The notes under the pieces are model-generated. The model was not told the origin of the DNA. It saw only the letters and a program-made list of their open reading frames with translations, and made no database searches. A stretch of DNA of 64,000 nucleotides. Origin: Gammaproteobacteria bacterium (GTDB taxonomy: Bacteria; Pseudomonadota; Gammaproteobacteria; Pseudomonadales; Pseudomonadaceae). The stretch is from contig JAHJYA010000067.1 of the NCBI GenBank assembly GCA_018826895.1, positions 62,001-126,000 of the forward strand, in the 5' to 3' direction. The translations under genes and the position numbers were made by a program. Each line of letters begins with the position of its first letter. Position 1 is the first letter of the stretch. Shown here one piece after another: positions 11,461 through 25,573 of the stretch.

Positions 11461-11960
11461 CGCGAACGCCGCCAAAAGCGGTCCGGTTCGCGGATGATTG
11501 CCAAATTGCCATCCCGACCAACGCAATCCATTCAGGACGTGAGGCCGTCCGACGGGGTTTTCGCCGCAAAGGCCGCGAGACTCTCGGAAATAAAGCCTTA
11601 AGCCATGATGCGCAGCCGCCCTCCCTGGACGGTTGCGGTAATGCCAACCCGCTGCGGATTTCGCGAGCGGCACCCGATTTTCAGCGATACGTGTAGGGTG
11701 GAGATGTACAGCCGCTGGTCTGCGTAGCTTTATTGAAGACGCTTCATCTCGTCCGCTACCAGCAGCTGATTCCTCCTCCTGACTAGTGCTTACTGTCACA
11801 ACAGCGAGCAGGAGACGTCTGTCGCGGCCCAGCCCAACTGGCTGATTGCCGCTTGACGATGAAGCGATTTACGACCGTTTCTGACGCGCCTGACACCGAC
11901 CCCTGAGAGTCGTGTGTGCCGAACGCCCTTTCCAGCAGCACTGGAAACCGACGGTACTAC
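11461..11960 (+). promoter_or_regulatory. Long 5' leader of rne (probable autoregulatory UTR)
   Basis: About 500 nt with no supported gene between the rne promoter and its start codon. It contains several self-complementary GC-rich stretches, for example GGACGTGAGGCCGTCC near 11536. In E. coli the rne mRNA has a 361-nt structured leader through which RNase E cleaves and limits its own message. By analogy this leader probably does the same; the actual fold was not computed. Confidence 0.6.
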
Positions 11961-24139: not shown

Positions 24140-24156
24140 CTGAACCTAAGCTGAAC
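24140..24156 (-). promoter_or_regulatory. PhoP box upstream of oprH
   Basis: Minus-strand GTTCAG-N5-GTTCAG, an exact direct repeat about 90 nt before the oprH start codon. It matches the Pseudomonas PhoP recognition pattern as I know it. It predicts positive autoregulation of oprH-phoP-phoQ. I could not place the -10 box with confidence. Confidence 0.85.
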
Positions 24157-24187: not shown

Positions 24188-24539
24188 CCGTAGGAGCGTC
24201 GCCCCGGCGCGAAGCCGTTTGGCGTTCTGAAGCACCGCTGGATGGCCACTATTCGTCGCGGGGCGCGACTCCCACGAAGATCTCAAAAGCACCGTCGCCA
24301 CGCCCACGCCGCTATAACACAGGCAAAAAAACGGGAGCCTTCGCAGGCTCCCGCACTCATTCTCAGAGAAAACGCCAGCACCCACCCGGGCGCTCGCTCA
24401 ACAACCTCACCTACGCTCCCTTGGAAGCGCATCACCAGTCTGGCAAAGCGCGCTGCATTTCTCCGTTTAGCTTTGTTGTTGCTATGCAACCTTTTGTAAA
24501 CGCCAGCGGCGCTGGCGATACACAGGGCGAGCCGGCAAA
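24188..24539. other. Noncoding gap between oprH and the PPTase gene
   Basis: About 350 nt without a supported protein gene. It contains a REP-like inverted pair (GTAGGAGCGTCGCCCC near 24189 and GGGGCGCGACTCCCAC near 24259) and a strong minus-strand terminator (24326-24354) that ends no annotated gene. GCCAGCGGCGCTGGC at 24502-24516 is a short palindrome. Confidence 0.6.
24326..24354 (-). terminator. Orphan intrinsic terminator, minus strand
   Basis: On the minus strand GCGGGAGCCTGCGAAGGCTCCCG forms an 8-9 bp GC-rich stem followed by TTTTTTT. The nearest upstream gene on this strand is about 1.2 kb away, beyond the oppositely oriented PPTase gene, so the terminator probably ends a small RNA starting within roughly 24400-24520. 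Confidence 0.75.
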
Positions 24540-25259
24540 ATGCCGCCCATGATCAGATCCCATTTACCGAGCTGCTGCTCGCCGCTACAGACCCACTGGC
24601 CCCTGCCCCATGCATTGCAAGCGGTCACGCTGGTCAGCACTCAATTCAACCCTGAGCAATTCGAGCCCGACGACTTCCAGCGCTGCGCCATCGCTCCGGT
24701 GCGCGGTGTGGCCAAGCGTCAGGCCGAGCACCTGGCTGGGCGCCTGTGTGCCCGTGAGGCGCTGTGGCGCCAGGCGGCGATTGATGGCGTACCGGCGGTG
24801 GGCGAAGACCGCGCGCCACAGTGGCCAGCCGCCGTGTGTGGGTCGATCACCCATGGTCATGGCTGGGCAGCAGCGGTGGTCGGTGAGCGCAACCAGTGGC
24901 GTGGCCTGGGCCTGGATGTGGAACAGCGTCTGGCGCCTGAGCGTGCCCTCAACCTGGCCAGCGAGCTGCTGACCCCAGCCGAGCTGCAACGCCTGCAGGG
25001 GCTGGATGAAACGGCCCAGGCGCTGCAGATCACCCTGACCTTCTCGCTCAAGGAGAGCCTGTTCAAGGCGCTGTATCCCCTGGCCGGGGTGCGCTTTTAC
25101 TTTCAGGATGCCGAGGTGCTCAGCTACACGCCCGACGGCCACGCCCAGCTGCGCCTGCTGACGCACCTGAGCGACAGCTGGCCGGCGGGTAGCCCGTTGC
25201 AGGGGCAGTTCAGCGTATGGCCCGAGCAGGTGCTGACCCTGGTTGCTATCCCGGCGTAA
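24540..25259 (+). CDS. 4'-phosphopantetheinyl transferase (EntD/PcpS type)
   Basis: Transfers phosphopantetheine from CoA to carrier proteins of fatty-acid, siderophore or other synthases. At 239 aa it has EntD-family length. Motifs: KRQAEHLAGRLCAREAL near residue 58, SITHGHGWAAAV near 101, the metal-binding GLDVEQ near 122, and FSLKESLFKALYP near 168. A second ATG three codons in is an alternative start. It is divergent from the oprH operon. Pseudomonas usually has a single such enzyme, so this may also serve AcpP. Confidence 0.92.
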   Translation: MPPMIRSHLPSCCSPLQTHWPLPHALQAVTLVSTQFNPEQFEPDDFQRCAIAPVRGVAKRQAEHLAGRLCAREALWRQAAIDGVPAVGEDRAPQWPAAVCGSITHGHGWAAAVVGERNQWRGLGLDVEQRLAPERALNLASELLTPAELQRLQGLDETAQALQITLTFSLKESLFKALYPLAGVRFYFQDAEVLSYTPDGHAQLRLLTHLSDSWPAGSPLQGQFSVWPEQVLTLVAIPA

Positions 25260-25275: not shown

Positions 25276-25573
25276 TAGGGTCTGTTCCCGTTTCGTCGCG
25301 AGCCGCGTTGCTGCGAAAAATCTCGCCAGGCCGGGCGGCGTTCCGCTAGGCGGAGGACGCAGGGAATGGACTCGCCGTCCACGTTGTTCCCTTGCCAAGT
25401 CCTCCAACAACGCATGGCGAGATTTTGCGCGCAACCCGCAGGGCCGGGCCCGTTTTAGCGCGATGCTGCGTTTCTCGATGGCTCATTTAGCCCACTAAAC
25501 TTCGCATCTCGTGCCTTGCCTCGCGCTCAAACTGGCTCCGGCGCGGCCGCGAACGAAACGGGAACAGACCCTA
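25276..25573. mobile_element. Miniature inverted-repeat transposable element (MITE)
   Basis: 298 bp bounded by perfect inverted repeats: TAGGGTCTGTTCCCGTTTCG at the left and CGAAACGGGAACAGACCCTA at the right. There is no transposase gene inside. The flanking TA at each end is consistent with a TA target duplication as made by IS630/Tc1-type transposases, which would mobilise it in trans. It sits just after the PPTase gene and touches the end of the next minus-strand gene, whose TAG stop is formed at its right end. Confidence 0.85.

What the first reader, a model, noticed from the sequence alone, without database searches (positions are those of the whole stretch)
24326..24520. Orphan terminator suggests a small RNA beside oprH
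A strong minus-strand terminator (GC-rich stem plus seven T) has no gene in front of it for over 1 kb on that strand. The 100-200 nt before it lack a credible protein gene. A small RNA of roughly 100-180 nt is the simplest explanation. It lies upstream of a PhoP-controlled operon, so PhoP or sigma-E-type control is worth testing.
Basis: inference. Interest (0 to 1): 0.5.

Follow-up and report, generated by a model that had tools for sequence, protein, structure and literature searches.

The report
Conserved RstA-linked small RNA family
The lone terminator is the end of a real, unannotated ~106-nt small RNA gene conserved across many Pseudomonas and some more distant relatives, whose promoter carries the binding box of the RstA stress regulator and whose gene in many of them sits beside the RstA/RstB genes, so it is probably the RNA arm of that two-component system.

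Summary
In detail: a strong minus-strand terminator (stem 24354-24332, seven U) has no same-strand gene within 1.2 kb upstream. It ends a conserved RNA gene. A covariance model finds it at 129.5 bits here, in 83 of 299 sampled Pseudomonadaceae genomes (6 of 19 genera), and in remote copies in at least four other families of the order. Three helices covary (109 double-changed cells; shuffled mean 28). No reading frame is conserved. An unpaired GGUGAGGUUGU stretch is near-invariant. An extended -10 (TGnCAnnnT) sits just before the first hairpin, so the RNA is about 106 nt (24430-24325).

Control is not PhoP or sigma-E. The PhoP-like repeats lie beyond the terminator, and the oprH neighbourhood is lineage-specific. 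All 76 distinct Pseudomonadaceae promoters carry TACA-N6-TRCA, the RstA box, 86-92 nt before the seed. In distant families the RNA lies directly downstream of rstA-rstB, with perfect TACA-N6-TACA boxes in four loci; in Pseudomonadaceae the usual order is rstA-rstB, inverted pcpS, RNA.

Best reading: an RstA-activated trans-acting sRNA. It matches no Rfam family. A P. aeruginosa sRNA-seq and northern survey (SPA0167, between PA1166 and pcpS) probably saw its orthologue. Targets are unknown; RstA control is inferred, not shown.

The parts
24325..24430 (-). predicted small RNA (about 106 nt): SL1, unpaired GGUGAGGUUGUUG, SL2, U-rich linker, terminator
   Evidence: CM hit 129.5 bits with R1 and 90.2 bits with R2; covariation; fold z -3.7. 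The 5' end is inferred from the -10 element; no transcript data.
24413..24430 (-). first hairpin SL1, GCGCUUC-CAAG-GGAGCGU
   Evidence: helix 1 of the consensus: 97.4% of cells paired, 4 of 6 pairs with double changes
24399..24412 (-). near-invariant, mostly unpaired segment AGGUGAGGUUGUUG, proposed seed
   Evidence: UGAGGUU invariant in all 53 aligned members, two members of another family included
24374..24397 (-). second hairpin SL2, sequence variable and shape kept
   Evidence: helix 2: all 6 pairs have double changes
24325..24354 (-). intrinsic terminator, GC-rich stem plus seven U
   Evidence: helix 3 97% paired
24437..24445 (-). extended -10 element TGC-CAGACT
   Evidence: among 73 distinct promoters picked by a TGnCAnnnT anchor, the unanchored positions around it are also conserved (T-17, T-16, A-9, C-8), at a near-fixed distance from the -47..-32 block; 5 of 96 members lack the exact motif
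24462..24477 (-). conserved block AACAAAGCTAAACGGA at about -47 to -32 (-35 region)
   Evidence: conservation profile; followed by 13 unconserved bases of near-constant length
24485..24498 (-). RstA-type box TACA-AAAGGT-TGCA at about -68 to -55
   Evidence: box in all 76 distinct Pseudomonadaceae promoters, 86-92 nt before the seed; 0.4% of shuffled stretches carry one; position in the window confirmed
24540..25259 (+). pcpS (4'-phosphopantetheinyl transferase), divergent neighbour; not part of the RNA gene
   Evidence: phmmer to 7bcz E 7.5e-74; divergent from the RNA in almost all Pseudomonadaceae copies
24140..24156 (-). GTTCAG-N5-GTTCAG, PhoP-type repeat of oprH (consensus from memory), downstream of the RNA terminator
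   Evidence: sequence; the same repeats precede oprH in loci without the RNA

Best explanation
Window 24430-24325 (minus) encodes a trans-acting regulatory small RNA of about 106 nt. Transcription is proposed to start just downstream of an extended -10 and to be activated by phosphorylated RstA of the RstA/RstB two-component system, bound to a TACA-N6-TGCA box at about -68 to -55. The RNA would fold into two hairpins and a terminator, exposing a near-invariant GGUGAGGUUGU segment that base-pairs with target mRNAs, probably with Hfq on the 3' U-tail. Shown: conservation, covariation, no conserved frame, promoter-like conservation, box, linkage to rstAB. Inferred: transcription here, RstA activation, Hfq use, base-pairing. 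Unknown: targets.
For: RNA gene: R1 finds it at 129.5 bits; 27 of 200 genus genomes score at least 98 bits, the next hits about 31 bits; 83 of 299 family genomes at E<=1e-6. Structure: 93.7% of cells paired, 109 double-changed cells against 28.4 shuffled, 0 of 500 shuffles reach any measure, sliding by one column collapses pairing to 46-48%. No conserved ORF. Independent unit: downstream genes differ between lineages (oprH, NapC-like, MFS, dienelactone-hydrolase-like); box and RNA are present or absent together at the pcpS locus (28 with box and RNA; 25 without RNA, all with at least 2 mismatches to the box). RstA: neighbouring regulator and kinase best match RstA and RstB models; RNA directly downstream of rstB in g11 (L169, L170), f35/g73 (L201), f7 (L191) and, found by looking there, f7/g66, f20 and f39; rstA-rstB-pcpS-RNA order at 1-6 kb in g13, g9, g2 and part of g1; perfect TACA-N6-TACA in L169, L170, L382, L384, L382 matching TACATNTNGTTACA, the E. 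coli SELEX consensus quoted in PMC4117788. Own genome has RstA and RstB homologues.
Against: No transcript data for this strain. Own rstAB is on another contig and unlinked. The second half-site in Pseudomonas is usually TGCA, not TACA, and in f35 TTCY. No RstA box precedes rstA itself. rstB is kept in Pseudomonas without the RNA, so the RNA is dispensable to the system. RstA models are matched below their equivalog cut-offs, and the closest solved relative is Acinetobacter BfmR rather than enterobacterial RstA. Exact-match seed scans gave only coding-sequence hits.
Confidence: 0.75

Rival explanations
1. The same small RNA, but the conserved TTACA-N5-TTGCA box is bound by another OmpR-family regulator (CpxR, OmpR/AmgR type) or another activator.
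For: TTTAC-N5-TTTGC also resembles a CpxR box (GTAAA-N5-GTAAA read from the other strand; from memory). The half-site is TGCA in 74 of 76 distinct promoters. rstAB is unlinked in the own genome.
Against: Adjacency to rstAB in several families and perfect TACA-N6-TACA boxes in four rstB-linked loci, one fitting the full RstA consensus.
Confidence: 0.17
2. The RNA works by binding a protein or by exposing an SD-like AGGUGA, not by pairing with mRNAs.
For: Near-invariant single-stranded GGUGAGGUUGU; no conserved pairing site found near start codons.
Against: Anatomy of a usual trans-acting sRNA: single-stranded conserved segment, U-rich linker, terminator with seven U or more. The scan only tested exact 10-mers.
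Confidence: 0.12
3. It is a leader or attenuator of the downstream oprH-phoPQ operon rather than an independent RNA.
For: oprH follows on the same strand here (start 24051), in P. cuatrocienegasensis (L030) and in g13.
Against: Downstream genes differ or are convergent in other lineages; oprH keeps its own GTTCAG repeats where the RNA is absent.
Confidence: 0.03
4. Not an RNA gene: a chance terminator, or a terminator for read-through from upstream.
For: Terminator-like sites are frequent in this GC-rich region.
Against: Conservation and covariation of the whole unit.
Confidence: 0.01

Closest known systems
SPA0167, a P. aeruginosa sRNA candidate (PMC3349714, Table 2)
   Same: Lies between PA1166 and pcpS on the minus strand of PA14, about 80 nt, in a table of northern-validated candidates. 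The PA7-sized genome G319 has the present RNA at that place and strand (L165).
   Different: Listed there as an antisense RNA of PA1166/pcpS, with no family, regulator or function. Identity is inferred from position and strand; the PA14 sequence was not compared.
sRNAs controlled by two-component systems or envelope sigma factors (OmrA/B, MicA, RybB, MgrR, CpxQ; from knowledge)
   Same: Works like them: short, intrinsic terminator, conserved single-stranded seed, promoter with a response-regulator box.
   Different: No sequence relation seen; the regulator is RstA-type; no RstA-controlled sRNA is known to me; targets unknown.
GcvB sRNA (from knowledge)
   Same: G/U-rich single-stranded segment as the putative seed.
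   Different: No Rfam match, different length and promoter.
RstA regulon genes: E. coli asr and csgD; P. fluorescens emhABC and mexCD-oprJ (PMC4117788, PMC8562477)
   Same: RstA-regulated promoters; the E. coli ones carry the TACA-N6-TACA type of box.
   Different: Those are protein genes; the P. fluorescens RstA paper mentions no sRNA, and the P. fluorescens lineage largely lacks this RNA.

Membership tests
independent bacterial small RNA gene | own promoter and own terminator | tested here: met
   conserved extended -10 and upstream blocks; terminator. Computational only.
independent bacterial small RNA gene | conserved RNA structure with covariation | tested here: met
independent bacterial small RNA gene | no conserved coding frame | tested here: met
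   chance frames differ in start, phase and length between members
independent bacterial small RNA gene | transcript detected | not testable with these tools
   only indirect: SPA0167 in P. aeruginosa
Hfq-dependent trans-acting sRNA | Hfq binding and base-pairing with trans targets | not testable with these tools
   3' tail of seven or more U is compatible; a 10-mer seed scan found no convincing target
RstA regulon | TACA-N6-TACA box in the promoter | tested here: met
   TACA-N6-TGCA here; TACA-N6-TRCA in all 76 distinct Pseudomonadaceae promoters; perfect TACA-N6-TACA in L169, L170, L382, L384. The window copy is an imperfect repeat.
RstA regulon | RstA binding and RstA-dependent expression | not testable with these tools
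   none
Rfam families (release 15) | score at or above a family's gathering score | tested here: not met
   no family over the RNA in the window or in 16 homologous loci; best chance hits far below threshold
PhoP regulon | PhoP box in the RNA's own promoter | tested here: not met
   GTTCAG-N5-GTTCAG lies at 24156-24140, downstream of the terminator; none upstream
sigma-E (AlgU) regulon | GAACTT-N16-TCTGA promoter (consensus from memory) | tested here: not met
   no GAACTT at -35; conserved -35 region is AACGGA
SPA0167 (P. aeruginosa) | same position, strand and sequence | tested here: inconclusive
   position and strand agree in G319, taken as P. paraeruginosa PA7 from its length of 6,588,339 bp (memory); sequence not compared

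The most novel reading that the evidence does not exclude
An old sRNA that arose as part of the rstA-rstB locus before the families of Pseudomonadales split and acts as the RNA output of RstA/BfmR-type two-component systems, which would add post-transcriptional repression to a regulon known so far only for protein genes.
Probability: 0.55. Interest if true: 0.72.

Novelty: new member of a known kind. Interest (0 to 1): 0.6.

Why it matters
RstA/RstB is a widespread but poorly understood two-component system; related systems are tied to efflux and nitrate respiration in P. fluorescens and to biofilm and resistance in Acinetobacter (BfmRS). A conserved sRNA with an RstA box, often encoded next to rstAB, gives a simple reporter for the system's activity and a concrete test of what it controls after transcription. 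It also gives an sRNA that had at most been seen once in a P. aeruginosa survey a family, a structure, a promoter and a likely regulator.

Tried and rejected
PhoP and sigma-E control: boxes absent or on the wrong side of the terminator. Rfam at gathering score and at loose E-values: nothing meaningful. Small-protein reading: no conserved start or frame. oprH leader: neighbours vary. Seed-target scan: 10-mer ACAACCTCAC in 12 genomes is about three times as frequent as the reversed control, but every site shared between the genomes examined (nine of them fetched) lies inside coding sequence, mostly Asn-Leu-Thr codons, so no target is claimed. RstA box upstream of rstA itself: not found. A diverged RNA near rstB in seven Pseudomonadaceae genomes that lack it, and in three f26 genomes (probably Acinetobacter): not found. 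Class-level search outside the order: only terminator-like chance hits. The ~30-bit hits in large Pseudomonas genomes (G172, G016, G126) show no pcpS nearby and are treated as chance. My first model (R1) included about 45 nt of promoter; the 5' end was revised after the conservation profile. Literature searches for PP_1183/1184, PA1165 and seed strings found nothing beyond SPA0167.

Full report
OBSERVATION. The minus strand carries GCGGGAGCC-TGCG-AAGGCTCCCG followed by seven T, at 24354-24325. The nearest plausible minus-strand gene upstream ends at 25571, 1.2 kb away, and the divergent plus-strand gene pcpS (24540-25259) starts 110 nt from the predicted RNA start. The 157 nt before the end of the terminator fold better than all 200 shuffles (z -3.5).

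CONSERVATION. A blastn search of 200 genus genomes returned matches in 28 genomes; 22 loci proved to be true copies that share the terminator, the upstream blocks and the divergent pcpS, the rest matching by the terminator hairpin or a short stretch only. A covariance model (R1, from 22 copies) separates true copies (98-158 bits, 27 of 200 genus genomes) from chance (about 31 bits). In the family, 83 of 299 genomes in 6 of 19 genera have it, including at least 24 of the 25 genomes of the genus that holds a genome with the length of P. paraeruginosa PA7 (G319). Named species with it include P. cuatrocienegasensis, P. oleovorans, P. mendocina, P. peli, P. guineae, P. alcaliphila, P. chengduensis, P. 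indica and P. carbonaria; P. straminea, P. punonensis, P. dryadis, P. argentinensis, Azotobacter and Stutzerimonas lack it at the pcpS locus.

STRUCTURE AND EXTENT. On 53 aligned members the three helices are paired in 93.7% of cells, with 109 double-changed cells against 28 expected; sliding the partners by one column drops pairing to 46-48%. No reading frame is conserved. All covarying helices lie downstream of TTTTGCCAGACT, whose conserved T-15 G-14 C-12 A-11 A-9 C-8 T-7 has the form of an extended -10; a 13-nt unconserved spacer of near-constant length separates it from a conserved block ending in AACGGA (the alignment there was anchored on TGnCAnnnT, so the invariance of those five letters is partly by construction, and 5 of 96 members lack the exact motif). 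The RNA is therefore predicted to be 24430-24325. Its order is: hairpin, near-invariant single-stranded GGUGAGGUUGUUG, variable hairpin, UUUUCUCU linker, terminator. In this species' minimum-energy fold GAGG of the seed pairs with CUCU of the linker; this pairing is not universal.

INDEPENDENCE. The gene after the terminator is oprH here, in P. cuatrocienegasensis and in genus g13, but an MFS-acyltransferase-like gene, NapC-like, an MFS transporter, dienelactone-hydrolase-like and others elsewhere, on either strand (names read from the translations, not tested against a library). In 25 Pseudomonadaceae pcpS loci without the RNA the TTACA-N5-TTGCA box is also missing (2-4 mismatches), while all 28 with the RNA have it exactly. 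So box, promoter, RNA and terminator are one unit, and the box does not belong to pcpS or oprH.

REGULATOR. In genus g11 and in more distant families the RNA lies directly downstream of a response regulator and histidine kinase whose best NCBIfam matches are RstA and RstB, though below the equivalog cut-offs. Looking directly downstream of rstB in other families then gave three further diverged copies (L382, L384, L385; R2 E about 1e-4 in 57 kb, filters off). The E. coli RstA consensus is TACATNTNGTTACA, classic form TACA-N6-TACA (PMC4117788; PMC8562477). Perfect TACA-N6-TACA boxes precede the RNA in L169, L170, L382 (TACATTTCGTTACA, full consensus) and L384; L191 has TACA-N6-TACT. All 76 distinct Pseudomonadaceae promoters have TACA-N6-TRCA, 86-92 nt before the seed, and L382, another family, has it at 88. 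In Pseudomonadaceae the order rstA-rstB, inverted pcpS, RNA holds at 1-6 kb in g13, g9, g2 and part of g1; it is broken in the own genome, in four other sampled genus members and in G218 of g2. rstB is kept in sRNA-less Pseudomonas, and in four of these the sequence after rstB looks like the 3' end of an inverted pcpS (read by eye), so there the RNA was probably lost. The own RstA homologue is also very close to Acinetobacter BfmR by its receiver and DNA-binding domains.

KNOWN. Rfam has no family for it. Ferrara et al. 2012 (PMC3349714) list SPA0167 between PA1166 and pcpS, minus strand of PA14, about 80 nt, in the table of northern-validated candidates; in G319 the RNA has exactly that position and strand. 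PA14 locus numbers put PA1157/PA1158 (PA14_49440/49420) near pcpS, as rstAB is in G319; that these are RstA/RstB is inferred from position. The P. fluorescens RstA study mentions no sRNA.

MECHANISM. Most likely: an envelope or metabolic cue acts through RstB, RstA-P binds the box at -68 to -55, the extended -10 promoter fires, and the RNA represses mRNAs through GGUGAGGUUGU. The steps after transcription are inferred from anatomy. An exact seed-complement scan gave only coding-sequence matches, so no target is named.

VERDICT. Observation confirmed; the sRNA interpretation is supported; the proposed PhoP or sigma-E control is not. New sRNA family of a known kind, with an inferred RstA regulator.

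Noticed in passing
window 25276-25573: A 298-bp element with 32-nt terminal inverted repeats (AGGGTCTGTTCCCGTTTCG ends, 84% complementary) lies just after pcpS, like a MITE; a similar end (GGGTCTGTTGCCGTTTCG) was seen between pcpS and the RNA in L008.
   Followed up: partly
window 24190-24290: A REP-like inverted sequence (GTAGGAGCGTCGCCCC...GGGGCGCGACTCCCACG) lies between the RNA terminator and oprH.
   Followed up: no
window 11687-11951 (+): rne-II 5' leader (RF01756), 207 bits: the cis-regulatory leader of RNase E.
   Followed up: no
L010:2567-2685 and L013:2630-2748: Matches to Bcj11 (Burkholderia RNA 11), 41-42 bits, just below the gathering score of 49, in Pseudomonas genomes.
   Followed up: no
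L394 (G470, family f4), about 20 nt after rstB: A perfect TACA-N6-TACA box follows rstB, but no sRNA copy was found there by the model; the next reading frame starts about 100 nt on.
   Followed up: no
L171 (G218): A copy with promoter, first hairpin and seed but without the usual second hairpin plus terminator; possibly decaying or ending at its second hairpin.
   Followed up: no
L188, L201 (family f35), L391-L393 (family f26): In f35 a MetR-like gene lies convergent after the RNA, with MetE-like sequence beyond; in f26 a LysR-type, apparently MetR-like gene follows the rstB homologue without the RNA (read from the sequence).
   Followed up: no
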